Shown: in pieces, positions 25,579 through 48,322 of the stretch
Layout: each line of letters begins with the position of its first letter
Position numbering within the stretch: position 1 is the stretch's first letter
Source of the DNA: Rhizobiales bacterium 62-47
GTDB lineage: Bacteria > Pseudomonadota > Alphaproteobacteria > Rhizobiales > Xanthobacteraceae
Reading direction: 5' to 3'
DNA: 64,000 nt
Assembly: GCA_001899255.1 (NCBI GenBank)
Contig: MKVX01000018.1
Location: 1-64,000 of the forward strand
Made by a program: the position numbers and the translations under genes
The notes under the pieces: model-generated
Told to the model about the DNA's origin: nothing
Databases searched by the model: none
What the model saw: the letters and a program-made list of their open reading frames with translations, nothing else

Positions 25579-25676
25579 GCTCGTGCCCGTTAGACCCAGC
25601 GACTTAACGCAAGTTGAAGGCTGCGAATATCGGCATCCTTGCTGTATTCGCGTCGCGGCAACTTGCGGGTGGGAGC

Positions 25677-26816
25677 TTGGCCAAAAGTCCTTTTTATACT
25701 GCAGAGCACATCGCCTTTCGCGATGTCGTCCGCCGCTTTGTCGAAAATGAGATCGAGCCTTTTGCCCATGCATGGGATGAGGCCGAGACATTCCCACGTG
25801 AGCTCTACGAGAAGGCGGCCGCTATCGGGTTGCTTGGTCTTGGCTTCCCGGAAGAATACGGCGGCACGCAGGTCGATAACTTCATGTGGATCGTCGCGGT
25901 GCAAGAACTAGCGCGAGCCGGGGCAGGGGGCGTCAGCGCCAGTCTCAAGAGCAACTCGATCGGCGCGCCCCCGATCGCGCGTGCGGGCAGTCCCGAACTC
26001 AAGGCGCGGGTGCTGCCGCAAATTCTCTCCGGAAAGAAAATCTCGGCGCTCGCTATCACGGAGCCGAGCGGCGGCTCGGATGTCGCCAATCTGCGCACCA
26101 CAGCGCGACGCGAGGGCGACGTCTACGTTGTAAATGGAGAGAAGACCTTCATCACCTCGGGCATCCGAGCCGACTATATTACGACGGCGGTGCGGACAGG
26201 CGGGCCGGGCCCGTCCGGCGTCAGCCTGCTGCTGATTGAGGGCGATACGCCCGGGCTGTCACGCACGCCGCTCAAGAAGATGGGGTGGTGGGCATCCGAC
26301 ACCGCGACTTTGCATTTCGACAACTGCCGCGTACCCGCCGGCAATCTGCTCGGCGACGAAGGCGCGGGCTTCAAGATCATCATGCATAATTTCAACAGCG
26401 AGCGACTGACCATGGCAGCCGGCTGCACCGCGGCGGCGCGGGTCTGTCTCGATGAGGCGATTGCGTATGCTAAGCAACGTCACACCTTCGGCAAGCCGCT
26501 CACCGGGCATCAGGTGATCCGGCACAAGCTGGTAGATATGGCGCAGCGTGTTGCGGCCTCGCAGGCGATGCTGGAGATGTTGGCATGGCGGCTCGATCAG
26601 GGTGAAAATCCGGTAGCCGAAATCTGCATGCTGAAAAATCAGGCGACGCAAACGATGGCATTCTGTGCCTCTGAAGCTGTGCAAATCTTTGGCGGCGCGG
26701 GCTTCATGCGCGGCGTCAAGGTCGAGCGGATCTATCGCGAGGTGAAGGTCAACGCCATCGGCGGCGGCACCGAGGAGATCATGAAGGATCTCGCCAGCCG
26801 ACAGATGGGATTGTGA
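25677..26816 (+). CDS. Acyl-CoA dehydrogenase (FAD)
   Basis: 379 aa from TTG 25677 (MAKSPFYTAEH), which fits the family N-terminus; an upstream TTG at 25614 would add 21 atypical residues. Helical N-domain, FAD/substrate motif ALAITEPSGGSDVANLRTT, and C-terminal FGGAGFMRGVKVERIYREVK, AIGGGTEEIM. The Glu normally in YEGT of medium-chain enzymes is Gly here. Glu242 in NSERL is the likely catalytic base, as in isovaleryl- and long-chain enzymes. It probably makes an enoyl-CoA and passes electrons to ETF. First gene of a plus-strand catabolic cluster, with a second homologue 107 nt on. Confidence 0.9.
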   Translation: MAKSPFYTAEHIAFRDVVRRFVENEIEPFAHAWDEAETFPRELYEKAAAIGLLGLGFPEEYGGTQVDNFMWIVAVQELARAGAGGVSASLKSNSIGAPPIARAGSPELKARVLPQILSGKKISALAITEPSGGSDVANLRTTARREGDVYVVNGEKTFITSGIRADYITTAVRTGGPGPSGVSLLLIEGDTPGLSRTPLKKMGWWASDTATLHFDNCRVPAGNLLGDEGAGFKIIMHNFNSERLTMAAGCTAAARVCLDEAIAYAKQRHTFGKPLTGHQVIRHKLVDMAQRVAASQAMLEMLAWRLDQGENPVAEICMLKNQATQTMAFCASEAVQIFGGAGFMRGVKVERIYREVKVNAIGGGTEEIMKDLASRQMGL

Positions 26817-26825
26817 ACTGGGCCT

Positions 26826-26907
26826 CATTCCGGAGCGCCTGCGAAATCAAGGCAAAGACAGGGAGACCTGTTCCGGCGCTCGCCAGAGGGCGGTATGTTC
26901 CGGAATG
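26826..26907. repeat. Possible degenerate palindromic repeat between two acyl-CoA dehydrogenase genes
   Basis: CATTCCGGA (26826-26834) and TCCGGAATG (26899-26907) are exact complements 64 nt apart with GC-rich partial pairing between. The arms resemble the better palindrome at 32432-32474. It may be a decayed copy of the same family. Confidence 0.35.
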
Positions 26908-26923
26908 ATGAGGAAGGACGACA

Positions 26924-28084
26924 ATGCTCTTCACGGCCGACCACGAAGAACCCCGCCGCATCCTGCAGAAGTTCATCGCCAACGAGATCAATCCGTTCGT
27001 CGACGAGTGGGAGAAGGCGGATATTTTCCCGGCGCATCAGGTCTTCAAGAAACTCGGCGATCTGGGCTTCCTTGGCCTCAACAAGCCAGTGGAATATGGC
27101 GGTCAGGGGCTGGACTACAGCTACGCGTTGATGATGGCGGAAGAACTCGGCGCTATCCGCTGCGGCGGCATTCCTATGGCGATCGGCGTGCAAACCGATA
27201 TGGCGACACCGGCGCTGGCGCGGTTCGGTTCCGACGAGGTGCGGAAAGAATTTCTGGTGCCGGCCATTGCCGGTGACGCGGTGACATCTATCGGCGTGTC
27301 GGAGCCAGGCGCGGGTTCGGATGTGGCCTCGATCAAGACCTATGCGCGTTCCGATGGCGATGACTACGTCATCAACGGCGGCAAGATGTGGATCACCAAT
27401 GGCACGCAGGCCGACTGGATTTGTCTGCTCGCCAATACCAGCGACGGCCCCGTCCATCGCAATAAATCTCTGATCTGCGTGCCGATGAAAACCAAGGGCG
27501 TCAACGTCGCGCGCAAGCTTGACAAGCTTGGTATGCGCTCATCCGATACCGCGCAGATTTTCTTCGAGGACGTGCGGGTGCCCAAGCGCAACCGCATCGG
27601 TGAGGAGGGGCAGGGCTTCACCTATCAGATGGTGCAATTTCAGGAGGAGCGCCTGTGGGGTGCTGCGGCATGTCTGAAGGCGCATGAACTCACCATCGAT
27701 GAGACGATCGAATACACTCGCAACCGCAAGGCATTCGGCCAAAGCATCCTCGACAATCAGGTGGTGCACTTCAAGCTTGCGGAAATGCAGACCGAGGTGG
27801 AATTGTTGCGCTCGCTGATCTATCGCGCGGCGGAAGCCTTGATAGCCGGCCAGGATGTGACCAAACTGGCGACGATGGCCAAGCTGCGGGCCGGGCGCCT
27901 CGGCCGTGAGTTGACCGATGCCTGCCTGCAATATTGGGGCGGTATGGGATTCATGAATGAGACACCGGTGAGCCGCGCCTATCGCGACAGCCGCCTGACG
28001 TCAATCGGTGGCGGCGCCGACGAGGTGATGCTCTCGATCCTTTGCAAGATGATGGGCACGCTGCCGGGCCGAGGTCAGAAATAG
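26924..28084 (+). CDS. Acyl-CoA dehydrogenase (FAD), second copy
   Basis: 386 aa. Ribosome site GAGGAAGGACGACA before ATG. Motifs: SIGVSEPGAGSDVASIKTYA for FAD/substrate, MWITNGTQADWICLLAN, LDKLGMRSSDTAQIFFEDV, and C-terminal YWGGMGFMNETPVSRAYRD, SIGGGADEVM. As in the preceding gene the YEGT glutamate is missing and Glu242 (QEERLW) is the likely base. The two enzymes are clearly diverged from one another and probably act on different acyl-CoAs of one pathway. The GST-like gene starts 12 nt downstream. Confidence 0.9.
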   Translation: MLFTADHEEPRRILQKFIANEINPFVDEWEKADIFPAHQVFKKLGDLGFLGLNKPVEYGGQGLDYSYALMMAEELGAIRCGGIPMAIGVQTDMATPALARFGSDEVRKEFLVPAIAGDAVTSIGVSEPGAGSDVASIKTYARSDGDDYVINGGKMWITNGTQADWICLLANTSDGPVHRNKSLICVPMKTKGVNVARKLDKLGMRSSDTAQIFFEDVRVPKRNRIGEEGQGFTYQMVQFQEERLWGAAACLKAHELTIDETIEYTRNRKAFGQSILDNQVVHFKLAEMQTEVELLRSLIYRAAEALIAGQDVTKLATMAKLRAGRLGRELTDACLQYWGGMGFMNETPVSRAYRDSRLTSIGGGADEVMLSILCKMMGTLPGRGQK

Positions 28085-28096
28085 GGACATGCGCTG

Positions 28097-28747
28097 ATGA
28101 TGACGCTCTACCACTGCTTCGCGGCGCGTTCGTTTCGCCCGCTCTGGATGCTGGAAGAAATGGGGTTGCCCTATGACCTCAAGATGCTGCCGTTTCCGCC
28201 GCGCGTCTTCGCCAAGGAATATCTCGGCATCAATCCGCTCGGCACCATCCCGTTTCTGATCGACGGTGAGACGCGGATGACGGAGTCATCCGGAATTTGT
28301 CACTATCTCGGTACCCGTCACGGTCCGACGCCGCTGACCGTCGGCGTCGAGGAGGCCGCCTATGGCGCATTCCTTAATTGGATGTATTTCAGCGATGCGA
28401 CGCTGACCTTCCCTCAGACGCTGGTGCTGCGTTACGGCCAGCTAGAGCCGGAAGAACGGCGCAATCCGCAGGTGGTAGGCGACTACGCCAAATGGTTCCT
28501 CGGCCGGCTCCGCGCCGTCGAGGCCGCGACAGGGCAGTCCGAAACGCTATGCGCCGGGCGGTTCACCGCCGCCGACATCGTCGTCGGCTATGCCTTGCGG
28601 CTCGCTGAGAACATCGGCCTCGCCAAGGATTTTGGGCCTAACGTCGCTGCTTACTGGGAGCGGTTGCAGCAGCGTGAAGGCTACCAGCGTGCGGTTGCCG
28701 CGGAAACGCTGGCGAGCGAGCAGCAGAACGTGCCGCGGCGTGCCTGA
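28097..28747 (+). CDS. Glutathione S-transferase family protein
   Basis: 216 aa. The N-terminal thioredoxin-like domain (about 1-78) shows MTLYHCFAARSFRPLWMLEE, the cis-Pro region GTIPFLIDG and the glutathione-contact motif MTESSGICHYLG. The helical C-domain is about 88-205 (AGRFTAADIVVGYALRLAE). Soluble. AGGGA precedes the ATG. It lies in the acyl-CoA dehydrogenase operon, so it may act as an isomerase or detoxifier of a pathway intermediate (inference) and not as a general detoxifying enzyme. Confidence 0.85.
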   Translation: MMTLYHCFAARSFRPLWMLEEMGLPYDLKMLPFPPRVFAKEYLGINPLGTIPFLIDGETRMTESSGICHYLGTRHGPTPLTVGVEEAAYGAFLNWMYFSDATLTFPQTLVLRYGQLEPEERRNPQVVGDYAKWFLGRLRAVEAATGQSETLCAGRFTAADIVVGYALRLAENIGLAKDFGPNVAAYWERLQQREGYQRAVAAETLASEQQNVPRRA

Positions 28748-28896
28748 CGCGGTGCTTCGTCGCACGGGCTGAATTGCGGGTCTTTTCTGGCACTTATCGG
28801 CGGTGACATCCGGTCCGAAGTCTGTATGCTTGGGGCGCTCCAGAGAGAGCGACGCGACGACGCGCACAAGCAACAGCGTTCCCGGGAGGGACGGAT

Positions 28897-29718
28897 ATGG
28901 ACGACGGCATTCGCCGGGATTCCAAGCATTTGATGCTGATCAGCCCGGAGCGGGTGTTTTACGCCGGGCTGCTGGGGCGGCCGCGGCAACGCACCAGCGG
29001 CGGGTTCGCCATCTACGTCGCGCTGCAGGGCGATATTTGTGTCACGCAAGGCGGTCGCGCTCGCGCAGGCGAGATGGCGGTGGTGATGCCCTATGTCGCC
29101 CACAGCGTTGAAAGCGAACATCCCTCGGTGATATGTTTGGTGATCGAACCGGAGACTGTGACGGTCAGGGCGCTGCAGGCGTTGGCCGCGCGCCTGTCTG
29201 GAACGGCCGGCAGCGCGATCGCCTCGCGCATTCGCGGCGCTTACGAAGCGCTGCGCATTACCGGACGGCGCAATGGCTTCACCACCAGCGAGTTCGATAC
29301 CATCTTCTTCGGTGAACAACTGGATACGCGGCCGATCGATGCGCGCATCGCGCGCGCCATCGTTCGCTTGGGCGATTTCTCGGGTACCGCCGTAACGGCG
29401 GCCGATTGCGCGGCGTCGGTGCATCTGTCGCAATCGCGCTTCCTGCACCTGTTCAAGGACCAGACCGGCATCTCGTTTCGCGCGTTCCGGGCCTGGAAGC
29501 GGGCGCGACATCTGTTGCATTTCGTCAACGAGGATATCAATCTCGCGCATCTGGCGCAGGATATCGGTTATCCGGATTCGACGCACTTCAGTCACTCGAT
29601 CCGCCGCTTCTATGGATTGCAGCCGCGCGCGATCTTCTCCGGCTCGCGCGATCTCGCGATCTATCGCAGCGATTCATCGCGCGCGACGCTTGCCGATCTC
29701 CGGCCGGGCCGTTCCTGA
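28897..29718 (+). CDS. AraC-family transcriptional regulator
   Basis: 273 aa. The N-terminal half is a cupin-like sensor domain (GGFAIYVALQGDICVTQGG, then AGEMAVVMPYVAHSVES). The C-terminal about 100 residues hold two helix-turn-helix units: DCAASVHLSQSRFLHLFKDQ and INLAHLAQDIGYPDSTHFSH with the closing FYGLQPRAIF. Strong ribosome site GGGAGGGACGGAT. It sits between the dehydrogenase/GST genes and the BKACE gene, all on the plus strand, and probably controls the surrounding catabolic genes in response to a pathway compound (inference). Confidence 0.9.
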   Translation: MDDGIRRDSKHLMLISPERVFYAGLLGRPRQRTSGGFAIYVALQGDICVTQGGRARAGEMAVVMPYVAHSVESEHPSVICLVIEPETVTVRALQALAARLSGTAGSAIASRIRGAYEALRITGRRNGFTTSEFDTIFFGEQLDTRPIDARIARAIVRLGDFSGTAVTAADCAASVHLSQSRFLHLFKDQTGISFRAFRAWKRARHLLHFVNEDINLAHLAQDIGYPDSTHFSHSIRRFYGLQPRAIFSGSRDLAIYRSDSSRATLADLRPGRS

Positions 29719-29825
29719 TACGCCGCTGACGCAGCTTTCGAAGATAGCGGCTTGACGCAAGATGGACGGTGGACCGCCCCGCATCATGCCTGCTGTTTCC
29801 GGCCGGCAGCAGAGGCATTTCCCGC

Positions 29826-30695
29826 ATGAGCGACAAAGCCGTCATCACCTGTGCGCTGAATGGCGTGCTCACCGATCCCAAGCAGCACAACGTGCCGGTG
29901 ACGCCCGAGGAAATGGCGCGCGAGGCCAGGGCGGCCTTCGATGCGGGCGCCAGCGTCATGCATATTCACTTGCGTCAGCAGGCGCCGAACAAGGGGCATC
30001 TGCCGTCATGGGACATCAATGTCTCGCGTGAAATCCAGCAGGCGATCCGTGAGGCCTGTCCCGGCGTCATCATGAATCACACCACGGGTACGTCGGGTCC
30101 CAACTACGGCGGCGCGCTCGATTGCGTGCGCGAGACCAAGCCGGAAATGGCAGCCTGCAATGCCGGCTCGTTGAACTATCTCAAGGTGAAGGCCGACAAT
30201 ACCTGGGCGTGGCCGCCGATGCTGTTCGATAACGCTGTCGAGAAGGTGCAGGATTATCTCGACGTGATGAAGGCAGCGAATACGCTTCCGGAGTTCGAAT
30301 GCTTCGATGTCGGCATCGTGCGTTGTGTCGGCATGTATAGGCAGACCGGCATGTATTCCGGGCCGCTGGAATACAATTTCGTTATGGGCGTCGCCTCCGG
30401 CATGCCGGCCGATCCGGAGTTGCTGCCGATCCTGCTCAAGTTGAAATTGCCGGAAGCCAATTGGCAAGTCACTGCAATCGGCCGCGCTGAGATCTGGCCG
30501 CTGCATCAGCGCTGTGCCGAATTGGGCGGTCACCTGCGTACCGGCCTTGAGGACACCTTCTATCGGCCGGACGGCAGCAAGGTGACGTCGAACGGGCAGC
30601 TGATCGAGACCATGGCGAAATATGCGCGGCAGGCCGGGCGCGAGATCGCCAGCCCGGCCGAAGCCAGACAGATTTTCGGCATTCGCAGTCATTGA
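29826..30695 (+). CDS. BKACE family beta-keto acid cleavage enzyme (3-keto-5-aminohexanoate cleavage like)
   Basis: 289 aa TIM-barrel enzyme. ATG 29826 has GAGG 10 nt upstream and fits the family start (MSDKAVITCALNGVLTDP); an earlier GTG at 29769 is unlikely. The metal-binding HxH is visible (His46, His48 in SVMHIHLRQQ), as are IMNHTTGTSGP and the C-terminal HLRTGLEDTFY. Known members take a beta-keto acid plus acetyl-CoA to acetoacetate plus a new acyl-CoA. The substrate differs among members and cannot be read here. Its placement between acyl-CoA dehydrogenases and ligase/carboxylase genes suggests it performs the C-C cleavage of this pathway. Confidence 0.9.
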   Translation: MSDKAVITCALNGVLTDPKQHNVPVTPEEMAREARAAFDAGASVMHIHLRQQAPNKGHLPSWDINVSREIQQAIREACPGVIMNHTTGTSGPNYGGALDCVRETKPEMAACNAGSLNYLKVKADNTWAWPPMLFDNAVEKVQDYLDVMKAANTLPEFECFDVGIVRCVGMYRQTGMYSGPLEYNFVMGVASGMPADPELLPILLKLKLPEANWQVTAIGRAEIWPLHQRCAELGGHLRTGLEDTFYRPDGSKVTSNGQLIETMAKYARQAGREIASPAEARQIFGIRSH

Positions 30696-30710
30696 ATGAA
30701 TGCCACGCAT

Positions 30711-30788
30711 CATTGCGAGCGCAGCGAAGCATTCCAGAAAGCAACAAAAACGAGCTGGATTGCTTCATAGCTGCGGCTTCTCGCAATG
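30711..30788. repeat. REP-like palindromic element, CATTGCGAG family
   Basis: Outer arms CATTGCGAG (30711-30719) and CTCGCAATG (30780-30788) with inner complementary parts (GAAGC...CCAG against CTGG...GCTTC) form an imperfect 78-nt palindrome between the BKACE and ligase genes. From memory this sequence type is abundant between genes of Bradyrhizobium and Rhodopseudomonas. Confidence 0.75.
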
Positions 30789-30823
30789 ACACTTGAGGGC
30801 ACTTGATTGAGGGAGGAGTGAAG

Positions 30824-32419
30824 ATGAGCAATCTGGCCGCAACCGGTGGGGTACCGGGTCCGGGCCGTATTGGCCGCGTAGCGATCGGCGATATCCTCAA
30901 GCGCGCCGCGCGCCGATTTCCACAACGCATTGCGCTGACGGATGGGGCGCGTCGTGTGACCTATACCGAGCTGGAGCGTGACGCCAATCGCTTCGCCAAC
31001 TATCTGGTGTCGCGTGGGCTTAAGCCCGGCGAGAAGATTTCCACGGTATGCAACAACTCGGTGGAATTCGTCAAAGCGCTGTTCGGCATTCACCGCGCCG
31101 GCCTGGTGTGGGTCCCGATCAACACCATGCTCGGCCCCGATGACATGGGGTTCATCCTCGATCATGCCGAAGTGCGCTTCGCATTGATTGACGATAATCT
31201 GCATGCGCAACCGGATCGTCGGGCGGCGCTGGAGAAGCGCGGCATTGATCTGATCGCCGTCGATTTGGCCGGCAACGCTGCCAAACAGGGCCTGCAAGAA
31301 TTCAATGCGCTGCTCGAAGGTCAATCCGACGTCGAACCCGAAATCGCCTTCGACGACCGCGATCTGGCGATGATCATTTACACCAGCGGTACGACGTCGC
31401 GTCCGAAGGGCGCGATGCATTGCCATCTTGCGGTGGTGATGGCGGCGATGAGCAATGCCATCGAAATGCATCTCGACCGCAACTCCGGCATCACCGGCCA
31501 ATTTCCGCTGTTCCATTGCGCGGCGCACGTCGTGCTGCTGAGTTTCCTTTCGGTCGGCGGCAAGATGGCGCTGATGCGCGGCTTCGATCCGGTAGCTTGC
31601 CTCGACGCCATCGACCGCGACAAGCTAAGTTTCTTCATCGGACTGCCGCTGATGTATCAGGTTATCCTCGATCATCCGCGTCGAAAGGAAGTGGACCTGT
31701 CGAGCCTCGAGACTTGCATCTACACCATGGCGCCGATGTCGAAGCCGCTGATCGAGCGTTGCATCGCCGAACTGTGCCCGAATTTCGTGCTGCCGAGCGG
31801 GCAGACCGAGATGTATCCGGCGACTACCATGTCGCAACCGGATCGGCAGTTGCAACGCTTCGGCAATTACTGGGGCGAGTCGATGATCGTCAACGAAACG
31901 GCGATCATGGATGACGATGGCCGCCTGCTGCCGCCGGGACAAGTCGGCGAGCTGGTGCATCGCGGACCCAACGTGATGCTGGGCTATTACAAGGATCCCA
32001 AGGCGACGGAGGACTCGCGCCGCTTTGGCTGGCATCATACCGGCGATCTCGCGATGATCGACGAACATGGTGAAGTACTGTTCGTCGATCGCAAGAAGGA
32101 CATGATCAAGTCGGGTGGCGAGAACGTCGCGTCGATCAAGATCGAGGAGACGCTGCTGGCGCATCCCGCCGTTCTGAATGCGGCGGTAGTGGGATTGCCG
32201 CATCCGCAATGGGGCGAGGCTGTGACGGCGTTCGTCAAACTCAAGCCCGGCGCGCAGGCGGACGAGGCAGGTATTGCCGAGCATTGCCGCAAGTATCTCG
32301 GCGGCTTCCAGGTGCCGAAGTTGGTCAAGATTCTCGACGAGATGCCGATGACGGCCACCGGCAAGCTGCGTAAGGTCGAACTGCGCCAGCAGTTCAGCGA
32401 ACACTTCGCTCAGGGTTGA
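30824..32419 (+). CDS. Acyl-CoA synthetase, AMP-forming
   Basis: 531 aa, ATG chosen because GGGAGGAG lies 6 nt upstream (an in-frame TTG at 30803 is ignored). ANL motifs: P-loop IIYTSGTTSRPKGAMHCH, GQTEMYPATTM, then HHTGDLAMIDEHGEVLFVDR, KKDMIKSGGENVAS and the catalytic-lysine MPMTATGKLRKVE. Cytosolic. It probably activates a free acid entering this pathway; chain type unknown. The carboxylase genes follow after a palindromic repeat. Confidence 0.9.
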   Translation: MSNLAATGGVPGPGRIGRVAIGDILKRAARRFPQRIALTDGARRVTYTELERDANRFANYLVSRGLKPGEKISTVCNNSVEFVKALFGIHRAGLVWVPINTMLGPDDMGFILDHAEVRFALIDDNLHAQPDRRAALEKRGIDLIAVDLAGNAAKQGLQEFNALLEGQSDVEPEIAFDDRDLAMIIYTSGTTSRPKGAMHCHLAVVMAAMSNAIEMHLDRNSGITGQFPLFHCAAHVVLLSFLSVGGKMALMRGFDPVACLDAIDRDKLSFFIGLPLMYQVILDHPRRKEVDLSSLETCIYTMAPMSKPLIERCIAELCPNFVLPSGQTEMYPATTMSQPDRQLQRFGNYWGESMIVNETAIMDDDGRLLPPGQVGELVHRGPNVMLGYYKDPKATEDSRRFGWHHTGDLAMIDEHGEVLFVDRKKDMIKSGGENVASIKIEETLLAHPAVLNAAVVGLPHPQWGEAVTAFVKLKPGAQADEAGIAEHCRKYLGGFQVPKLVKILDEMPMTATGKLRKVELRQQFSEHFAQG

Positions 32420-32431
32420 TCATGACGTGTC

Positions 32432-32474
32432 GTCATTCCGGGGCGCGATCACTTTGCGGCCAGCCCGGAATGAC
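32432..32474. repeat. REP-like palindromic element, GTCATTCCGGG family
   Basis: GTCATTCCGGG (32432-32442) and CCCGGAATGAC (32464-32474) are perfect 11-bp complements around a 21-nt centre, between the ligase and carboxyltransferase genes. It is a common intergenic repeat type in Bradyrhizobium-like genomes (from memory). Confidence 0.75.
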
Positions 32475-32513
32475 AAAGGATAGTTCTCTTGGTTTAGAAA
32501 GCTCAGTTCCAAC

Positions 32514-34136
32514 ATGGCAGTGATTGAATCGACGATTGCGCAAGGTAGCGACGCCTACAAGGCCAATCGAGCTGGGATGTTGGCGCTGATCGAGCGGATG
32601 CGCATCCTGGAAGCACGCAGCCGCGCTGCGTCGGCGGCAGCCAAGGAGCGCTTTCACAAGCGCGGCCAGTTGCTGCCACGCGAGCGTGTCGCGCTGGTGC
32701 TGGACCCCGGCACGCCGTTCATCGAACTGTCGACGCTGGCCGGCTACATGTTCGATGTTCCGGATGCGGACAAGAGCGTGCCCGGCGGCGGCGTCGTCGC
32801 CGGCATTGGATTTGTCTCCGGGATTCGCTGCATGGTCAGCGCCAACGACTCGGGCATCGATGCCGGCGCGTTGCAGCCTTACGGTCTCGACAAGACGCTG
32901 CGCGTGCAGGAATTGGCGCTGGAAAACAAGCTGCCTTACGTGCAACTCGTGGAAAGTGCCGGCGCCAATCTGCTGCGCTATCGTGTCGAAGATTTCGTGC
33001 GCGGCGGCAACATCTTCCGCAATCTGGCACGGATGTCGGCGGCCGGATTACCGGTCGTGACGGTGACGCACGGCTCGTCCACTGCCGGCGGCGCGTATCA
33101 GACCGGACTGTCGGATTACATCGTCATGGTCCGCGGCCGCACCCGTGCCTTTCTTGCTGGGCCGCCGCTGCTCAAGGCTGCGACCGGTGAGATCGCGACC
33201 GAGGAGGAGCTTGGCGGCGCCGAGATGCACACCAGTATTTCCGGGCTCGGCGATTACCTCGCCGAGGACGATCGCGATGCATTGCGCATTGCCCGCGACA
33301 TCATGGCGGGTCTCGACTGGGACCGACCATCGCAGCTCGCGGATCGACTCGGCGTTCGGCCGCCGCGTTACGACGCCGAAGAACTGCTTGGCATCATGCC
33401 GATGGATCACAAGCGGCCGGTGGATATGCGGCAGGCTATCGCGAGGTTTGTCGATGACTCGGACTTCACCGAGTTCGGCGCAAACTATGGCCCGGCGACG
33501 GTCTGCGGGCAGGCGCGCATCGAAGGCTTTGCCATTGGCATCATCACTAACAATGGCCCGCTCGATCCGGCGGGCGCCAACAAGGCAACGCACTTCATTC
33601 AGGCCTGCTGCCAGTCGCGCACGCCGCTGCTCTATCTCAACAATACCACGGGTTACATGGTCGGCAAGGCCTATGAGGAGGCCGGCATGATCAAGCACGG
33701 CTCCAAGATGATTCAGGCGGTGACCAGCGCGACAGTGCCGCAGATCACCATCTATTGCGGCGCCTCGTTCGGCGCGGGCAATTACGGCATGTGCGGTCGT
33801 GGTTTCCACCCGCGCTTCTGCTTTTCGTGGCCGAATGCCAAGACCGCGGTGATGGGCGGTGAGCAGGCGGCCGAGACCATGGCGATCGTTACCGAGGCCG
33901 CCGCCGCCCGCAAGGGCAAACCGATCGAGCGCGACAAGCTCGACGCGATGAAGGCCAAGATTACCTCGGTGTTTGATGGCCAGATGGATGTGTTCTCGAC
34001 TAGTGCCCGCGTGCTCGACGACGGTGTGATCGATCCGCGCGACACGCGGGACGTACTGGCAGAAGTGCTGGCGATCTGCCGCGAAGCCGATGCACGCACC
34101 CCGCAGCGGATGCAGTTCTCGGTGGCGCGGCCATGA
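32514..34136 (+). CDS. Acyl-CoA carboxylase carboxyltransferase (beta) subunit
   Basis: 540 aa with two crotonase-fold halves: N-half GGGVVAGIGFVSGIRCMVSA and THGSSTAGGAYQTGL; C-half NNGPLDPAGANKATHFIQ, LYLNNTTGYMVGKAYEEAG and the glycine-rich YCGASFGAGNYGMCGRG. These are the CoA- and biotin-site loops of the propionyl-/methylcrotonyl-CoA carboxylase family; GNYGMCGR and FFSWPNAK-like residues (CFSWPNAKTAVMGGEQAAE) favour the methylcrotonyl/geranyl-CoA side, though this needs a tree. It partners with the alpha subunit, whose start overlaps its stop by 4 nt. Confidence 0.92.
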   Translation: MAVIESTIAQGSDAYKANRAGMLALIERMRILEARSRAASAAAKERFHKRGQLLPRERVALVLDPGTPFIELSTLAGYMFDVPDADKSVPGGGVVAGIGFVSGIRCMVSANDSGIDAGALQPYGLDKTLRVQELALENKLPYVQLVESAGANLLRYRVEDFVRGGNIFRNLARMSAAGLPVVTVTHGSSTAGGAYQTGLSDYIVMVRGRTRAFLAGPPLLKAATGEIATEEELGGAEMHTSISGLGDYLAEDDRDALRIARDIMAGLDWDRPSQLADRLGVRPPRYDAEELLGIMPMDHKRPVDMRQAIARFVDDSDFTEFGANYGPATVCGQARIEGFAIGIITNNGPLDPAGANKATHFIQACCQSRTPLLYLNNTTGYMVGKAYEEAGMIKHGSKMIQAVTSATVPQITIYCGASFGAGNYGMCGRGFHPRFCFSWPNAKTAVMGGEQAAETMAIVTEAAAARKGKPIERDKLDAMKAKITSVFDGQMDVFSTSARVLDDGVIDPRDTRDVLAEVLAICREADARTPQRMQFSVARP

Positions 34137-36130
34137 GTTCTGCCCAGACTTTGAAGCGAACGCCATTCCGCAAGATTCTCATTGCCAATCGCGGCGAGAT
34201 CGCGCTGCGAGTGATGCGCACGGCACGTCGCCTCGGCTTCGCGACGGTCGCGGTTTATTCCGATGCCGATGCCAATGCGCTGCACGTGCTTGCCGCGGAT
34301 CAGGCGGTGCGCATAGGCGAGCCGCTACCGTCGCAATCCTATCTGCACATCGATGCCATCGTTGCCGCGGCGAAAGCGACCGGTGCCGACGCCGTGCATC
34401 CCGGTTATGGCTTCCTCGCCGAGAACGAGGATTTCGCCGCGGCCTGCCGCGATGCCGGACTGGTGTTCATCGGGCCTTCACCGGACGCCATCGCGGCGAT
34501 GGGGAACAAGGCAGGCGCCAAGGCGATCATGCAGAATGCCGGCGTGCCTTGCGTGCCAGGCTATCAGGGCGAGGATCAATCCGACGCCACCATGCTCGCC
34601 GAAGCTGAACGCATCGGCTTTCCGGTGATGATCAAGGCGGTGGCGGGCGGCGGCGGCCGCGGCATGCGGTTGGTGTCGGATGCTGCTGTTTTCGCGTCGA
34701 GCCTGCGCAGCGCGCGTTCCGAAGCGCAAAGCGCCTTCGGCGATCCCACCGTTATCCTCGAACGTGCCATCGTCGACCCGCGCCATATCGAGATACAGGT
34801 GTTCGGCGATCGGTACGGCAACGCCATCCACCTCGGCGAGCGCGATTGCTCGGTGCAGCGGCGGCATCAGAAGCTGATCGAAGAGGCGCCGTCTCCGGCA
34901 GTGTCGCCCGAGTTGCGGGCGCGGATGGGCGAGATTGCCGTCAAGGCGGTCAAGGCCATTGGCTACGAAGGTGCCGGAACGCTGGAGTTCCTGCTCGATC
35001 CCTCCGGCGCGTTCTATTTCATGGAGATGAATACCCGGCTGCAGGTCGAGCATCCGGTTACTGAGGCTATCACCGGTCTCGATCTGGTCGAACTGCAGCT
35101 GCGCATCGCCGGTGGTGAGCCGCTGGGCATCGTGCAGGATGATGTGAAATTTTCCGGTCATGCCATCGAGGTGCGGCTTTGTTCGGAAGACGCGCGGCAT
35201 GATTTCATGCCGCAGTCCGGCCGCATGCTGGATTGGCAACCGGCCGATGATCTTCGTGTCGAGCACGCCTTGCAATCCGGCATCGAGATCCCGCCGTTCT
35301 ACGATTCGATGATCGCCAAGGTGATCGCGCATGGCGCGACGCGTGACGAAGCGCGGCGCAAGCTGATCCACGGCATGGAACAGACGGTCGCGTTTGGTGT
35401 CATCACCAATCAGGCGTTTCTGGCGTCATGCCTGCGTCATGATGTGTTCGCCAAGGGGGGCGCGACGACCGCGTTCATCGGCGAAAACACCGCTGCGCTG
35501 CTTATGCCGCGCGATCATGGTCAGCCGCCGGTTGCGGCGCTCGCGGCGCTGTTATTCTACGTCACCGATCGCCACGCGCCGCCGTGGCGGCCCGGGCGGT
35601 CGCTGGCGGCGACGTTTCCCATTGCGATGCGCTTGCATCTCGACGGCAAGGCGCATGACGTGGAGATCGTGCGCGAACGTGACGGTCACTACGTCGCCAA
35701 TCTGGATGAGCATGCCCATCGTCTGACCGTCGAACAACTGGACGAGCGCAACATCCGCTTCAGCATTGATGGGCTGTCCGAGTCCGTGCGCTTTCGGCGC
35801 GACGGAGAACATCTTTACATGCTGCGGCAAGGTGAAACAATCACGATCCGTGATCTGACGCGCGCGGCGCCGGAGCGAGCCGCCAAGAATGGCGGCGACG
35901 GCAAGGTGCGGGCGGCGATGAATGGCCGTGTCGTCGCCGTGCTGGTGAAGCCGGGCGAGCGGGTCGAAGCCGGGCAGCCCATCGTCACGCTCGAAGCCAT
36001 GAAAATGGAGCACGTGCATGTCGCGTCGGTTTCAGGCATCATCGCCGAGCTCGCCGTCGAAGAGGGCGAGCAGGTGACGACCGGCAGGATTGTCGCCGCA
36101 ATTGAAACGGGTGCTCAAGCGGCATCATAA
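34133..36130 (+). CDS. Acyl-CoA carboxylase biotin carboxylase/BCCP (alpha) subunit
   Basis: 665 aa. Biotin carboxylase domain at about 11-460: FRKILIANRGEIALRVMRTA, the ATP-grasp glycine loop KAVAGGGGRGMRLV, EAPSPAVSPELRARM and the active-site EMNTRLQVEHPVTEAITGLD. A linker/BT region follows and then the C-terminal biotinyl domain, with EAMKMEH carrying the biotinylated Lys624. ATP-dependent carboxylation of biotin, then transfer to acyl-CoA by the beta subunit. The 4-nt overlap (ATGA) with beta implies coupled translation. It is full length and intact. Substrate as for beta. Confidence 0.93.
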   Translation: MSSAQTLKRTPFRKILIANRGEIALRVMRTARRLGFATVAVYSDADANALHVLAADQAVRIGEPLPSQSYLHIDAIVAAAKATGADAVHPGYGFLAENEDFAAACRDAGLVFIGPSPDAIAAMGNKAGAKAIMQNAGVPCVPGYQGEDQSDATMLAEAERIGFPVMIKAVAGGGGRGMRLVSDAAVFASSLRSARSEAQSAFGDPTVILERAIVDPRHIEIQVFGDRYGNAIHLGERDCSVQRRHQKLIEEAPSPAVSPELRARMGEIAVKAVKAIGYEGAGTLEFLLDPSGAFYFMEMNTRLQVEHPVTEAITGLDLVELQLRIAGGEPLGIVQDDVKFSGHAIEVRLCSEDARHDFMPQSGRMLDWQPADDLRVEHALQSGIEIPPFYDSMIAKVIAHGATRDEARRKLIHGMEQTVAFGVITNQAFLASCLRHDVFAKGGATTAFIGENTAALLMPRDHGQPPVAALAALLFYVTDRHAPPWRPGRSLAATFPIAMRLHLDGKAHDVEIVRERDGHYVANLDEHAHRLTVEQLDERNIRFSIDGLSESVRFRRDGEHLYMLRQGETITIRDLTRAAPERAAKNGGDGKVRAAMNGRVVAVLVKPGERVEAGQPIVTLEAMKMEHVHVASVSGIIAELAVEEGEQVTTGRIVAAIETGAQAAS

Positions 36131-36142
36131 GCGGATCGAGTT

Positions 36143-36925
36143 ATGACTGAAAATAAGAGTGTTTTGCTGGAGAAGCGCGGGCAGGCGCTGTGGATCACGA
36201 TCAATCGGCCGGAAAAGCGCAATGCACTGAATGCCGAGGTGATCGCGGGTATCGTTCGAGGCTATCGCGAGGCCCATGACGATCCGAAGGTACGCGTGAT
36301 CGTCCTGACCGGCGCCGGCGACAAGGCCTTCTGTGCCGGCGCGGATCTGCAGAACACCGGCGGCGCCTTCGCGATGGATTTCTCGCGTCCCAATGTCGAT
36401 TATGCCGACCTGCTGAGGTTGTCGCAGAACGCCACCAAGCCGGCGATCGCGCGCGTCAACGGCGTTTGCATGGCCGGCGGCATGGGCCTGCTGTGCATGA
36501 CCGATATGGCGGTGGCGGCGGATCACGTACTGTTCGGTTTGCCGGAGGTCAAGGTCGGCGTGTTCCCGATGCAGGTGATGAGTCTGCTGCAATCGATCGC
36601 GCCGCGCCGCCTGATCAACGAATGGTCGCTGACCGGTGAGCCGTTCGACGCGCGGGCCGCGATGTCCGCAGGCTTGCTCAATCATATCGCGCCTGCCGCC
36701 GAACTCGACGCCAAGCTCGATTGGCTGATCGGTCGTATCACGGACAAGTCGCCGACCGCGATTCGTCGCGGCAAATATGCCATGCGCGCTATCGCGGCGA
36801 TGTCGTTCGATGAGGCGATTGCCTACACCGAAAGCCAGATCGCACTGCTGGCCATGACCGAAGATGCCAAGGAAGGCCTCAAGGCGTTCGGCGAGAAACG
36901 CAAGCCATCCTGGCCGGGGCGCTGA
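36143..36925 (+). CDS. Enoyl-CoA hydratase/isomerase family protein
   Basis: 260 aa crotonase fold: WITINRPEKRNALNAEV, the oxyanion loop segments LTGAGDKAFCAGADLQ and GVCMAGGMGLLCMTDMAVA, then FGLPEVKVGVFPMQ and the C-terminal trimerisation helices. It lies 12 nt after the carboxylase alpha gene. In Liu/Atu-type clusters the same position holds the methylglutaconyl-CoA or isohexenylglutaconyl-CoA hydratase, which would fit here (inference). Residues usual for hydratase catalysis (two Glu) are not both obvious, so isomerase or lyase activity is possible. Confidence 0.88.
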   Translation: MTENKSVLLEKRGQALWITINRPEKRNALNAEVIAGIVRGYREAHDDPKVRVIVLTGAGDKAFCAGADLQNTGGAFAMDFSRPNVDYADLLRLSQNATKPAIARVNGVCMAGGMGLLCMTDMAVAADHVLFGLPEVKVGVFPMQVMSLLQSIAPRRLINEWSLTGEPFDARAAMSAGLLNHIAPAAELDAKLDWLIGRITDKSPTAIRRGKYAMRAIAAMSFDEAIAYTESQIALLAMTEDAKEGLKAFGEKRKPSWPGR

Positions 36926-36963
36926 TCGGCGTCCTGGCGTTCAACACTGCGGGGGAGGTTGCC

Positions 36964-38508
36964 ATGCTGATGACGGAACTGGTTCGGCGGGGCGCGGTCT
37001 TCTACGGGCCGAAAACTGCCATCATGTATGGCAACGACAAGCTCACCTTCACGCAGGTCGATCAACTCTCCAACCAGATCGCTAACGCATTTATCGCGAT
37101 CATGGGACTCGCGGTCGGGCGTCGCGTCGGGCTGTTGCTGAACAATTCGGTCTTCACCATCCCGGTGGATTTCGCTTTTGCCAAGGCGAGGTTGTCGCGG
37201 GTGCCGCTGAACGCGCGGCTGTCGGCGGTTGAGCAGAAGCAGATGCTCGAGGGGGCCGGCGCCGATATCCTGCTCCATGGCATGGATCTCAAGCCCCGCG
37301 CGCAAGAGCTGGCGCAATCGATGCCGGGACTGAAGACGATCTGCATCGGCGATCCAACCGACCCGAACGATCTGCTCTACGTGGCGAAAAGCCAGCCGCA
37401 AACGGCGCCGGAGCGCAGACCGGAGCCGGACGATATCGTCATCACCATCTTCACATCCGGTACCACGGGTCGGCTGAAGGCGGTCGAGCATACGCAGGCC
37501 AGCTGGGCCGCGATGACGATGAACATCTGCGCCAACCTTGAGATCAAGGAAGGCGATATCATGTTGCATGCCGCCTCGATGATCCATGCCAGCGGCTGCT
37601 TTGTCGTGCCGTATTGGATCAATGGCGGCACCGCCGCCGTATTGCCCGGATTCACGCCGGCGTCCTATCTCGATGCCATCGAGCGATGGAAACCGACGGC
37701 GCTCAATCTGGTGCCGACGATGATCGGCATGCTGCTGGACCATCCTGGTATCGAACAGGTTGACATGCGCTCGGTGAGGTCGATCGTCTACGGCGCTTCG
37801 CCGATGCCGCGGCCGACCATCGAACGTGCGTTGAAATTATGGGGGCCGCGGTTCCTGCAATATTACGGGCAATCCGAGGCGCCGGTCTTCATCACGCATT
37901 TGCGGATGGAAGATCATGTGGGCCCGCACGCCGACAAGCGGTTGGCGGCATGCGGTCGCCCCAGCATCGACTGCGAGATTCGGTTGGTCGACGAGGAAGG
38001 CAACGATGTCGCGCCGGGTGAGGCAGGCGAGATCGCGCTGCGCGCGCCGTTCGCCATGCGTGGCTACTACAACGCCGACGATCTCAATGCACAAACGTTT
38101 CTGCCCGGGGGCTGGATCCGCACTCGCGACGTCGGCCGCTTCGATGACGATGGTTATCTCTACCTCGTCGATCGCACATCGGACATGATCGTCACCGGCG
38201 GCTACAATGTGTATCCGCGTGAGGTTGAGGATGTGCTGGCGGCGCATCCGGCGGTACGTGAAGTCGTCGTTGTCGGTATTCCCGATGACAAATGGGGCGA
38301 AGCAGTTGCTGCATTCGTGGCGTTGCGTGCCGGCCAGCGGGCCGACGATGCGGCCCTGATAGGCTTCGCCAAGGATCGTCTCGCCGGGTACAAGGTGCCG
38401 AAGTCGGTGCACTTCATCGACGAGGTGCCAAAGAGTCCGGTCGGCAAGTTATTGCGCCGCGCGGTGCGCGATCCGTTCTGGAAGGGTCGCGAGCGCCGCA
38501 TCGGGTAA
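36964..38508 (+). CDS. AMP-dependent acyl-CoA ligase with an unusual P-loop
   Basis: 514 aa ANL enzyme; GGGGGAGG lies before ATG. The P-loop reads TIFTSGTTGRLKAVEHTQ: the usual Pro-Lys-Gly is Leu-Lys-Ala, with the lysine kept. Other motifs are normal: YYGQSEAPVFITH, RTRDVGRFDDDGYLYLVDR, TSDMIVTGGYNVYPREVED and the closing catalytic Lys in SPVGKLLRRA. The substitution could change adenylate handling, but related fatty-acid ligases also vary here. It is the second ligase of the cluster and probably activates a different acid or re-activates an intermediate. Confidence 0.88.
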   Translation: MLMTELVRRGAVFYGPKTAIMYGNDKLTFTQVDQLSNQIANAFIAIMGLAVGRRVGLLLNNSVFTIPVDFAFAKARLSRVPLNARLSAVEQKQMLEGAGADILLHGMDLKPRAQELAQSMPGLKTICIGDPTDPNDLLYVAKSQPQTAPERRPEPDDIVITIFTSGTTGRLKAVEHTQASWAAMTMNICANLEIKEGDIMLHAASMIHASGCFVVPYWINGGTAAVLPGFTPASYLDAIERWKPTALNLVPTMIGMLLDHPGIEQVDMRSVRSIVYGASPMPRPTIERALKLWGPRFLQYYGQSEAPVFITHLRMEDHVGPHADKRLAACGRPSIDCEIRLVDEEGNDVAPGEAGEIALRAPFAMRGYYNADDLNAQTFLPGGWIRTRDVGRFDDDGYLYLVDRTSDMIVTGGYNVYPREVEDVLAAHPAVREVVVVGIPDDKWGEAVAAFVALRAGQRADDAALIGFAKDRLAGYKVPKSVHFIDEVPKSPVGKLLRRAVRDPFWKGRERRIG

Positions 38509-42021: not shown

Positions 42022-42023
42022 CG

Positions 42024-42761
42024 TCAGGTCTCGCTCGATTGCAGGCGCGGTGTTTCCGCGGGCTGCTCGGTCGCCTGCTGCTCGCGCAGATAGTCGCAGA
42101 CCGCTTCGCATTTCTCGCGCATGTGCTCGAACATCAGCAGACCGAGCTCTTCACCGGCCCGCCGGCGCAACGCATCGATGATGGCCTCGTGTTCGCGCAT
42201 CGCATCGCTTAAGCGTTCGGACTTGAGATTGGCAGAGTAGCGCAATCGCCGGATCACTGCGTTGGCGCTGGCGTAGTTGGCGCTCAGTATCGGATTGTCC
42301 GCAGCATCGACGATCGACTGATGAATCATCTGGTTGAGGCGGAAATAGTCGGTCAGTTCGCGCCGCAAATAGCTGGTGTACATATCGAGGTGCAGCCGCT
42401 CGATGGCGGCGATGCCGTCATCCGAGATGCGCGCGCAGGCGAGGCGGCCGGCGACAAAATCGAGCCCGGCGATGACTTCGAACAGATGGCGGATACCGGC
42501 CTCGGTAAAGGCCCGGACGCGCGCGCCACGGTTCGGCAGCAGTTCAACCAGGCCCTCTGCGGCCAATACCTTCAGTGCCTCACGGAGCGGCGTGCGTGAC
42601 ACGTTGAAACGCGCGCACAGCTCGCGCTCGGGGATGCGGGCGCCCGACGGCAGGTGGCCCTCGACGATGAAGTCCCGCAGCCTGACGAGGATATCGTCGT
42701 GCAGGGAGGCGGGTTGATCCTCGTCCGGCTCATAGCTTCCGATGCGCATCAGATTATTCAA
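42024..42761 (-). CDS. GntR-family (FadR/FCD) transcriptional regulator
   Basis: 245 aa. N-terminal winged helix: PERELCARFNVSRTPLREAL then VLAAEGLVELLPNRGARV. C-terminal FCD effector domain of about 130 residues (HLFEVIAGLDFVAGRLAC, LNQMIHQSIVDAADNPIL, MREHEAIIDALRRR), with conserved His/Asp positions that usually bind a metal and a small organic acid. The oxidase gene begins 2 nt after its stop, so both are one operon. It faces the aminotransferase gene across 191 nt and likely controls both sides. Confidence 0.9.
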   Translation of the reverse strand: MNNLMRIGSYEPDEDQPASLHDDILVRLRDFIVEGHLPSGARIPERELCARFNVSRTPLREALKVLAAEGLVELLPNRGARVRAFTEAGIRHLFEVIAGLDFVAGRLACARISDDGIAAIERLHLDMYTSYLRRELTDYFRLNQMIHQSIVDAADNPILSANYASANAVIRRLRYSANLKSERLSDAMREHEAIIDALRRRAGEELGLLMFEHMREKCEAVCDYLREQQATEQPAETPRLQSSET

Positions 42762-45134: not shown

Positions 45135-46121
45135 ATGCGACGACTTGCGAAAATTGCGGCTGCCGGTGCAGCCATTCTGCTCAGCACTCCGGCGCTGGCG
45201 TGGGAGCCGACCAAGCCGGTGGAAATCGTCGTTGCCGCGGGAGCGGGCGGTGCGTCCGACCAGATGGCGCGCATGATTCAGGCGGCGGTGCAGAAGAACA
45301 ATCTGATGAAGCAGCCGATGGTGGTCTCGCTCAAGGGCGCGGCTTCCGGTGCCGAAGCCCTGATCTATATGAAGTCGAGCGACGGCGATTCCAACAAGGT
45401 GCTGATCGCATATTCGCTGATTTACATGCTGCCGCTCTCGGCCAAGATTCCCTTCAACTGGCGCGAGCTGACACCGGTCGCGGTGATCGCGATGGACCAG
45501 TTCGTGTTGTGGGACAATGCCGGCAAGCCCTACAAGAACGTCAAGGAGTTCATCGACGCGGCGAAGGCGTCGAGTTCGCCGTTCAAGATGGGCGGGACCG
45601 GTTCGAAGCGCGAAGACCAGGTTCTGACCGTCTTCATGGAAAAGCGCACCGGCGCCAAGTTCGTTTACCTGCCCTACAAGTCGGGCGGCGAGGCGGCGAC
45701 GCAGTTGGTCGGCAATCACATCGATGCCAACGTCAACAATCCGTCGGAAAATCTCGAGGTCTGGCGCGCCGGACAGGTCCGTCCGCTGTGCGTGTTCGAC
45801 AAGGAGCGCATCTCCTACAAATCCAAAGTCACCGAGACGCAGTCGTGGAATGACATCCCGACCTGCAAGGAGGAAGGGCTCGACGTGCAGTATCTGATGC
45901 TGCGCGCGATGTTCCTGCCGGGCAAGGTAACGCCGGAGCAGGTCGCGTTCTACGTCGATCTGTTCAAGAAAGTGTCGGAGACGCCGGAATACAAGGATTA
46001 CATGGAGAAGCAGGCGCTGAAGCCGATCTTCCTCACCGGCAAGGATATGACCAAGTTTCTCGAAGAAGACGATGCGCAGAACAAGTCGCTGATGACCGAG
46101 GCCGGCTTCGTCGCCAAGTGA
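45135..46121 (+). CDS. tctC: Tripartite tricarboxylate transporter, periplasmic binding protein (Bug/TctC)
   Basis: 328 aa. Sec signal peptide MRRLAKIAAAGAAILLSTP, probable cut after ALA near residue 22. The mature protein has the Bug-type opening WEPTKPVEIVVAAGAGGASD, a two-lobed binding fold and the usual YLPYKSGGEAATQLVG and ID-lid segments. GGGAGGAAAC precedes ATG. It catches a carboxylate in the periplasm for the TctA/TctB membrane complex encoded next. The ligand is not predictable, as Bug proteins bind very diverse acids. It is separated from tctB by two hairpins. Confidence 0.9.
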   Translation: MRRLAKIAAAGAAILLSTPALAWEPTKPVEIVVAAGAGGASDQMARMIQAAVQKNNLMKQPMVVSLKGAASGAEALIYMKSSDGDSNKVLIAYSLIYMLPLSAKIPFNWRELTPVAVIAMDQFVLWDNAGKPYKNVKEFIDAAKASSSPFKMGGTGSKREDQVLTVFMEKRTGAKFVYLPYKSGGEAATQLVGNHIDANVNNPSENLEVWRAGQVRPLCVFDKERISYKSKVTETQSWNDIPTCKEEGLDVQYLMLRAMFLPGKVTPEQVAFYVDLFKKVSETPEYKDYMEKQALKPIFLTGKDMTKFLEEDDAQNKSLMTEAGFVAK

Positions 46122-46129
46122 CAAGGTAC

Positions 46130-46216: not shown

Positions 46217-46245
46217 CTCAATGCTTCCAACGATCGAAACAAGCC

Positions 46246-46785: not shown

Positions 46786-46807
46786 CGAGAGTTCGGACGG
46801 ACGAACG

Positions 46808-48319: not shown

Positions 48320-48322
48320 GGC

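What the first reader, a model, noticed from the sequence alone, without database searches (positions are those of the whole stretch)
25677..38508. Liu/Atu-like pathway with a BKACE enzyme in place of HMG-CoA lyase
Two LCAD/IVD-type acyl-CoA dehydrogenases, carboxylase beta and alpha, enoyl-CoA hydratase and two acyl-CoA ligases mirror leucine/acyclic isoprenoid degradation, but no HMG-CoA lyase is present. A BKACE enzyme, which cleaves beta-keto acids with acetyl-CoA to give acetoacetate, sits among them with an AraC regulator and a GST-like protein. This may be a new branched-acid or dicarboxylate degradation route.
Basis: partly seen in the sequence, partly recalled or inferred. Interest (0 to 1): 0.7.

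Follow-up and report, generated by a model that had tools for sequence, protein, structure and literature searches.

The report
Geranyl-type carboxylase cluster with BKACE
A conserved set of bacterial genes appears to break down acids with an awkward methyl branch by carboxylating the branch and then splitting the chain with an unusual acetyl-CoA-using enzyme; what it feeds on, and whether that enzyme replaces the usual lyase, is not yet known.

Summary
In detail: ten same-strand genes (25614-38508) encode two acyl-CoA dehydrogenases, a GST-like protein, an AraC regulator, a BKACE enzyme, two acyl-CoA ligases, a biotin carboxylase (beta, alpha) and an enoyl-CoA hydratase. The carboxylase is of the geranyl-CoA type, not methylcrotonyl or propionyl: selectivity glycine, no MCC insertion, 100/100 clade with P. 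aeruginosa GCC-beta. The BKACE-carboxylase pairing is conserved: 54 of 54 named loci of at least 19.5 kb and 17 of 20 unnamed ones; BKACE and beta-subunit distances correlate at r = 0.915. No HMG-CoA lyase was found in those 54 loci, but this genome has one in its leucine-type cluster, so 'in place of' is unproven. Of 64 distinct cluster genomes 55 have a lyase match and 9 none; five of the nine also lack AtuA. Best reading: a beta-methyl acyl-CoA is dehydrogenated, gamma-carboxylated, hydrated and cleaved by a lyase in trans to a free 3-oxo acid, which BKACE and acetyl-CoA turn into a shorter acyl-CoA plus acetoacetate. Bolder reading: BKACE does the lyase step too. Substrate unknown; no step assayed.

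The parts
25614..26816 (+). ACD1, acyl-CoA dehydrogenase (start 25614 TTG or 25677 TTG)
   Evidence: PF00441/02770/02771; match at 42% identity or more in 45 of 54 long named BKACE loci
26924..28084 (+). ACD2, acyl-CoA dehydrogenase
   Evidence: PF00441/02770/02771; in 50 of 54 long named loci
28097..28747 (+). GST-like protein, role unknown
   Evidence: PF13409; in 46 of 54 long named loci; best PDB match a GST at E 5e-14
28897..29718 (+). AraC-family regulator
   Evidence: PF12833; in 44 of 54 long named loci
29769..30695 (+). BKACE, beta-keto acid cleavage enzyme (probable start ATG 29826)
   Evidence: PF05853 286 bits; zinc and catalytic residues kept in 102 of 102 aligned rows; AlphaFold model closest to Kce 2y7f
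30803..32419 (+). ACS1, acyl-CoA ligase
   Evidence: PF00501/PF13193; in 15 of 54 long named loci at 42% identity or more
32514..34136 (+). acyl-CoA carboxylase beta subunit, geranyl-CoA carboxylase type
   Evidence: best PDB match 5ikl_B GCC beta 616 bits, MCC 3u9r 495; Gly without the MCC insertion; tree; in 54 of 54 long named loci
34133..36130 (+). acyl-CoA carboxylase alpha subunit (biotin carboxylase and biotinyl domains)
   Evidence: PF00289/02786/02785/00364; AMKM motif; in 54 of 54 long named loci
36143..36925 (+). enoyl-CoA hydratase-family protein, candidate 3-alkylglutaconyl-CoA hydratase
   Evidence: PF00378; in 10 of 54 long named loci at 42% identity or more, more distant copies in some others
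36964..38508 (+). ACS2, acyl-CoA ligase
   Evidence: PF00501/PF13193; at 80% identity or more in 2 of 54 long named loci (L155, L170) and in the shorter loci L115, L127, L150

Best explanation
The cluster degrades a carboxylic acid with a methyl branch on the beta carbon, larger than isovalerate. A ligase makes the CoA ester, a dehydrogenase makes the 3-methyl-2-enoyl-CoA, the geranyl-type carboxylase carboxylates the methyl group to a 3-alkylglutaconyl-CoA, and the hydratase gives a 3-hydroxy-3-alkylglutaryl-CoA. An HMG-CoA-lyase-type enzyme encoded elsewhere (here in the leucine-type cluster) splits this into acetyl-CoA and a free 3-oxo acid. BKACE joins these same two products: 3-oxo acid + acetyl-CoA gives the shortened acyl-CoA + acetoacetate. 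The net result is a carbon skeleton cut without spending ATP to activate the 3-oxo acid. Shown here: gene content, carboxylase subtype, kept BKACE catalytic residues, conserved linkage. Inferred: every reaction, the order of steps and the substrate.
For: Carboxylase beta: GCC-type glycine and no three-residue insertion, the published rule (PMC4673880, passages seen). Of 95 full-length carboxyltransferase rows taken from 92 BKACE loci, 92 (one a locus) show it; the other 3 are extra, distant paralogs in L236 and L110 (rows under 470 residues or with stops were dropped, some genomes appear twice). The window protein is in a 100/100 clade with PaGCC. BKACE with both carboxylase subunits in 54 of 54 long named loci of alpha- and betaproteobacteria, in several gene orders, in a shorter gammaproteobacterial bin (L130) and in 17 of 20 unnamed loci. 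BKACE and beta-subunit distance matrices correlate at r = 0.915 over 28 chosen loci, against at most 0.376 in 2000 permutations (shared species history contributes). Zn-site His/His/Glu, the base Glu and Arg/Asp kept in 102 of 102 rows, and the position of Kce Glu14 is Leu in all, arguing against a cationic tail (the Kce numbering and roles are recalled). BKACEs elsewhere accept free 3-oxo acids with alkyl tails, among them beta-ketoisocaproate (PMC6365646, passages). A lyase match is present in 55 of 64 cluster genomes, including this one. The chemistry of the two families is established knowledge.
Against: No enzyme has been assayed and the substrate is unknown. The hydratase is in the locus in only 10 of 54 long named loci at 42% identity or more, and no lyase was found in the 54. 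Nine of 64 cluster genomes have no detected HMG-CoA lyase. Three of 20 unnamed loci have BKACE without the beta subunit nearby (L065, L068, L069). BKACE could act at another step. The two papers seen on the Atu route write acetate plus a 3-oxoacyl-CoA rather than acetyl-CoA plus a free 3-oxo acid (passages of PMC4847356 and PMC4097962).
Confidence: 0.55

Rival explanations
1. BKACE itself replaces HMG-CoA lyase: it binds the 3-hydroxy-3-alkylglutaryl-CoA, performs the cleavage, and recombines the two nascent products into shortened acyl-CoA and acetoacetate.
For: The two lyase products are exactly BKACE's two substrates (chemical inference). No lyase found in the 54 long named loci (own HMGL as query, tblastn E 1e-8, half coverage). 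Nine of 64 cluster genomes lack a detected HMGL, and five of these nine also lack AtuA. G042 and G147, rated 100% complete, have only LeuA and CimA as PF00682 proteins; the other seven were not tested with PF00682. The AlphaFold model matches ObcA structures (E 2e-13 to 2e-12), one of them solved with a C4-CoA adduct, so the superfamily handles CoA adducts.
Against: 55 of 64 cluster genomes do have an HMGL match, an enrichment over the order sample. Seven of the nine without one are titled MAG; G147 and G472 are unnamed. G042 and G147 also carry a true methylcrotonyl-CoA carboxylase without a lyase, so their gap is wider than this cluster. G472, G506, G508 and G509 have AtuA. No BKACE is known to me to cleave a 3-hydroxyglutaryl-CoA (recall).
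Confidence: 0.17
2. BKACE acts first: the substrate is a free 3-oxo acid (for instance a ring-cleavage product); BKACE turns it into acyl-CoA and acetoacetate, and the acyl-CoA then runs through dehydrogenase, carboxylase, hydratase and a lyase in trans.
For: BKACEs can act on free acids early in a pathway, e.g. 2-deoxy-3-keto-ribonate (PMC6365646, passages); ligase 1 is not universal in the cluster (15 of 54 at 42% identity).
Against: Leaves the 3-oxo acid produced by the lyase unexplained; window and several relatives carry ligases that suggest a free acid entering by activation.
Confidence: 0.15
3. A second leucine/isovalerate (methylcrotonyl-CoA) or a propionyl-CoA pathway, with BKACE a bystander.
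For: General resemblance to the Liu gene set.
Against: Gly instead of Phe, no insertion, GCC clade; the genome already has two MCC-type copies and a PCC; BKACE linkage conserved.
Confidence: 0.05

Closest known systems
Atu (acyclic terpene utilization) pathway of Pseudomonas, AtuA-H
   Same: Geranyl-type carboxylase alpha/beta, acyl-CoA dehydrogenase, enoyl-CoA hydratase, acyl-CoA ligase; beta-methyl carboxylation logic (gene list from PMC4847356 passages)
   Different: No AtuA in the cluster; a BKACE, a GST-like protein and an AraC regulator instead; carboxylase has Arg (His or Asn in some relatives) where PaGCC has Glu, before the selectivity Gly
Liu (leucine/isovalerate) pathway
   Same: Dehydrogenase, biotin carboxylase, hydratase order of chemistry; acetoacetate as an end product
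   Different: Carboxylase is not MCC; no HMG-CoA lyase in the cluster; an MCC cluster with lyase is elsewhere in this genome
BKACE family (PF05853; Kce, 3-oxoadipate, deoxyribonate and 3,5-dioxohexanoate enzymes)
   Same: TIM-barrel fold, Zn ligands and catalytic Glu kept; clear family membership
   Different: Below the cut-off of the four NCBIfam BKACE models it matches (best 194.5 bits against 382); linked to a gamma-carboxylating acyl-CoA carboxylase, a pairing found in no paper listed
ObcA (oxalate biosynthesis)
   Same: Related fold and acetyl-CoA-dependent cleavage releasing acetoacetate (recalled)
   Different: Longer protein, 19-20% identity, different substrate

Membership tests
Geranyl-CoA carboxylase (GCC) beta | Gly at the Phe191(MCC)/Gly162(GCC) position and no three-residue insertion (PMC4673880) | tested here: met
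Geranyl-CoA carboxylase (GCC) beta | Phylogenetic placement with PaGCC apart from MCC and PCC | tested here: met
   100/100; the program warned of long branches elsewhere in the tree, none of them the window row or PaGCC
Geranyl-CoA carboxylase (GCC) beta | Carboxylates geranyl-CoA | not testable with these tools
   no assay; residue before Gly differs from PaGCC
Atu pathway | AtuA, AtuB and AtuG genes in the cluster | tested here: not met
   no AtuA or short-chain-dehydrogenase domain among the ten cluster proteins; AtuA-family protein only at C18:417316, with no carboxylase seen within its 19 kb stretch
Liu pathway | MCC-type carboxylase and HMG-CoA lyase in the cluster | tested here: not met
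Propionyl-CoA carboxylase | Beta subunit groups with PCC | tested here: not met
BKACE | PF05853 over the curated cut-off, Zn ligands and base Glu | tested here: met
BKACE | Converts a 3-oxo acid and acetyl-CoA to acyl-CoA and acetoacetate | not testable with these tools
   no assay
Known BKACE subfamilies in NCBIfam | Score above a curated subfamily cut-off | tested here: not met
   194.5/382, 161.3/350, 157.8/430 and 132.6/725 bits
HMG-CoA lyase | Member of PF00682/NF004283 in the cluster | tested here: not met
   no such match among the ten proteins; genome-wide, none in the window

The most novel reading that the evidence does not exclude
This BKACE clade is a bifunctional replacement for HMG-CoA lyase: it takes 3-hydroxy-3-alkylglutaryl-CoA directly to shortened acyl-CoA plus acetoacetate, making a lyase-free version of the Atu/Liu route that runs in genomes such as g47 in which neither HMG-CoA lyase nor AtuA was detected.
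Probability: 0.15. Interest if true: 0.75.

Novelty: new variant of a known kind. Interest (0 to 1): 0.5.

Why it matters
The fate of the product of the lyase step in the gamma-carboxylation route is unsettled: the two papers seen here assign the step to AtuA or to LiuE and write acetate plus a 3-oxoacyl-CoA (passages). A conserved BKACE partner points instead to acetyl-CoA plus a free 3-oxo acid, and offers an ATP-free way to use it. It also gives a gene marker for breakdown of beta-methyl acids, perhaps of plant or isoprenoid origin (inference), in Bradyrhizobium, Rhodopseudomonas, Phaeobacter and Thalassovita, betaproteobacteria and a gammaproteobacterial bin, and a testable function for a BKACE clade that passes none of the NCBIfam subfamily cut-offs it matches.

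Tried and rejected
Rejected: MCC or PCC identity of the carboxylase; chance neighbourhood; genome-wide absence of HMG-CoA lyase; the AtuA-family protein of this genome as part of the system (by my reading it sits beside a branched-chain-type ABC transporter and other enzymes, with no carboxylase in the 19 kb stretch). Led nowhere: PDB nearest neighbours of the two dehydrogenases, the hydratase and the GST-like protein do not tell the substrate. In NCBIfam (long lists were cut to the best 25) the only listed match over its cut-off is the alpha subunit to a general biotin-carboxylase subfamily. The two primary BKACE papers asked for by DOI (recalled as Bellinzoni 2011 and Bastard 2014) are not held, so I could not check whether the latter already lists this clade or its gene context. 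The idea that the GST-like protein isomerises the double bond (the carboxylase paper finds the trans isomer unlikely to fit) is untested. Terpene-derived acids as substrate are chemical analogy only.

L117 was not held and not searched. AtuA was looked for in 21 genomes and found in 9. In one search the 26 loci under 19.5 kb were left out of the counts. In one search at most 5 candidates a genome were scored. Completeness figures exist only for genomes reached by kinship, not for those reached through named loci. In one search the class 'Gly and no insertion' was a selection rule; the 3 rows of BKACE loci that fail it are told above. In the tree, 8 of the 9 rows labelled MCC form the MCC group and one (L215) falls outside it; two rows labelled other-paralog lie inside the GCC clade. 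The BKACE rows include repeated genomes.
Full report
Observation. Gaps run from -4 to 149 bases and the alpha subunit carries the biotin motif AMKM. Flanks are an MFS transporter and a small protein without a Pfam match upstream, and downstream a short opposing ORF and an opposing FAD-linked oxidase.

Which carboxylase. The beta subunit matches geranyl-CoA carboxylase 5ikl_B at 616 bits, MCC 3u9r at 495, and most chains named PCC beta at 232 bits or less (one chain deposited as PCC beta, 9tps, scores 482). The published rule (PMC4673880; passages seen) is Gly in GCC against Phe191 in MCC, with a three-residue insertion before the Phe. The window has Gly and no insertion. Of 95 full-length carboxyltransferase rows from 92 BKACE loci, 92 (one a locus; 84 of type 1, 8 of type 2) have the same; the other 3 are extra distant paralogs in L236 and L110. 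Twenty rows, repeats included, have Phe; they are MCC or MCC-like. In an IQ-TREE tree of 47 rows the window protein lies with PaGCC in a 100/100 clade of 26, apart from MCC (97/98, 8 of the 9 rows labelled so) and PCC (100/100) (the program warned of long branches among other rows). BKACE-linked enzymes form two groups, with PaGCC nearer to type 1. The residue before the Gly is Arg, His or Asn in type 1 (78, 5, 1), which includes the window, and Glu or Asp in type 2 (5, 3); PaGCC has Glu. So the window enzyme is GCC-type but its acyl group may be more anionic than geranyl (inference).

Which BKACE. The protein is a full PF05853 member but far below the cut-offs of the four NCBIfam models it matches. 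The His, His and Glu of the zinc site, the Glu aligned with the Kce base, and the Arg and Asp are kept in 102 of 102 rows; the position aligned with Kce Glu14 is Leu in all (residue roles in Kce are recalled, while Zn and a Glu base are described for BKACE15 in passages of PMC11961710). An AlphaFold model (mean pLDDT 87.9) matches Kce best, then other PF05853-type chains, cis-epoxysuccinate hydrolase and ObcA, of which one entry is solved with a C4-CoA adduct.

Conservation. In a sample of 397 genomes of the order, 32 have a BKACE match at E 1e-60; in the family of G147, 5 of 119, two of them already in the first sample. Of 20 such loci read out, 17 have carboxylase beta and alpha near BKACE; L065, L068 and L069 do not have the beta subunit. 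A scan of named genomes kept the best 80 loci (more matched), including Bradyrhizobium, Rhodopseudomonas, Phreatobacter, Mesorhizobium, Phaeobacter, Thalassovita, Azohydromonas and Leptothrix. Of the 54 with at least 19.5 kb, all alpha- or betaproteobacterial by title or kinship, 54 have beta, 54 alpha, 50 ACD2, 46 GST, 45 ACD1, 44 AraC, 15 ligase 1, 10 hydratase and 2 ligase 2 (42% identity or more), and none an HMG-CoA lyase match (own lyase as query, E 1e-8, half coverage). A 13 kb gammaproteobacterial contig, L130, has the carboxylase, dehydrogenases and BKACE too. Gene order differs between lineages. BKACE and beta-subunit distances correlate at r = 0.915 over 28 chosen loci, against at most 0.376 in 2000 permutations; shared species history is part of this. 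Some relatives add organic-acid transporters (branched-chain-type ABC and DctP by Pfam; a DctM-like gene by my reading), further ligases, and by my reading an SDR or a thiolase.

The lyase question. This genome has an HMG-CoA lyase at C18:892419-893306 inside a methylcrotonyl-CoA carboxylase cluster. Of 64 distinct genomes with the BKACE ortholog, 55 have an HMG-CoA lyase match (54 over the curated cut-off, one a fragment) and 9 do not. In the order sample the lyase is in 30 of 32 BKACE carriers and in 117 of the other 365 genomes (Fisher 3e-12, but with genera as units 6 of 7 against 56 of 135, p = 0.04; one search scored at most 5 candidates a genome). This supports a lyase in trans. Against it, G042 and G147 (rated 100% complete) have only LeuA and CimA among PF00682 proteins and no AtuA; G505, G516 and G518 also lack HMGL and AtuA, while G472, G506, G508 and G509 have AtuA. 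G042 and G147 carry a true MCC without a lyase too, so either BKACE covers both routes there, or an unrecognised lyase exists, or the assemblies miss it. Seven of the nine are titled MAG; G147 and G472 are unnamed.

Mechanism. [quoted passage not shown] These two are exactly BKACE's substrates, and the BKACE products are a shortened acyl-CoA and acetoacetate, without ATP. The two Atu papers seen instead write acetate plus 3-oxoacyl-CoA and assign the step to AtuA or LiuE (passages of PMC4847356 and PMC4097962). That LiuE of P. aeruginosa also has HIHG-CoA lyase activity is in the title of a reference seen. A BKACE is reported active on beta-ketoisocaproate and similar acids (PMC6365646, passage). 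All reaction steps here are inferred.

Novelty. Paper searches for BKACE or its older names together with geranyl- or methylcrotonyl-CoA carboxylase or HMG-CoA lyase listed no paper joining them (listings only, open-licence library). The primary BKACE papers are not held, so prior notice of this clade cannot be excluded. I rate it a new variant of a known kind.

Noticed in passing
G000 C2, locus L016 about 7600-11400: Second MCC-type carboxylase copy (beta and alpha) followed by a 38-residue HMG-CoA lyase fragment at 11250-11363 (79% identical to the intact copy); by my reading conjugation-type genes lie downstream.
   Followed up: partly
G000 C2:8481-9368, loci L001/L017: The other BKACE of this genome scores above the curated cut-off for 3,5-dioxohexanoate:acetyl-CoA acetone transferase (523 against 430 bits); by my reading a hydroxyacyl-CoA-dehydrogenase-like gene and a branched-chain-type ABC transporter lie near.
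   Followed up: partly
L230, L231 (G147, G042): A genus with true MCC alpha/beta and an acyl-CoA dehydrogenase but no HMG-CoA lyase detected in the genome.
   Followed up: partly
L219-L221, L239: Carboxylases of G472, G509 and G506 have Gly or Ala at the selectivity position yet keep the insertion and form a clade of their own; those of G506 and G509 lie within about 4 kb of an AtuA-family gene, while for G472 the label AtuA-linked used was not shown.
   Followed up: partly
window 13377-18947 (-): 1856-residue protein with DMFA2_C, DUF4082 and cadherin/Ig-like repeats, a probable surface protein.
   Followed up: no
window 45135-49609: Tripartite tricarboxylate transporter TctC, TctB, TctA followed by an opposing CoA-transferase family III gene.
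   Followed up: no
window 39052-42111 (-): 1019-residue fusion of an FAD-linked oxidase and 4Fe-4S domains downstream of the cluster; an 88% identical neighbour is kept in L150.
   Followed up: no
G000 C18:417316-418629, locus L238: AtuA-family protein; by my reading beside a branched-chain-type ABC transporter and other enzymes, with no carboxylase among the genes seen.
   Followed up: partly
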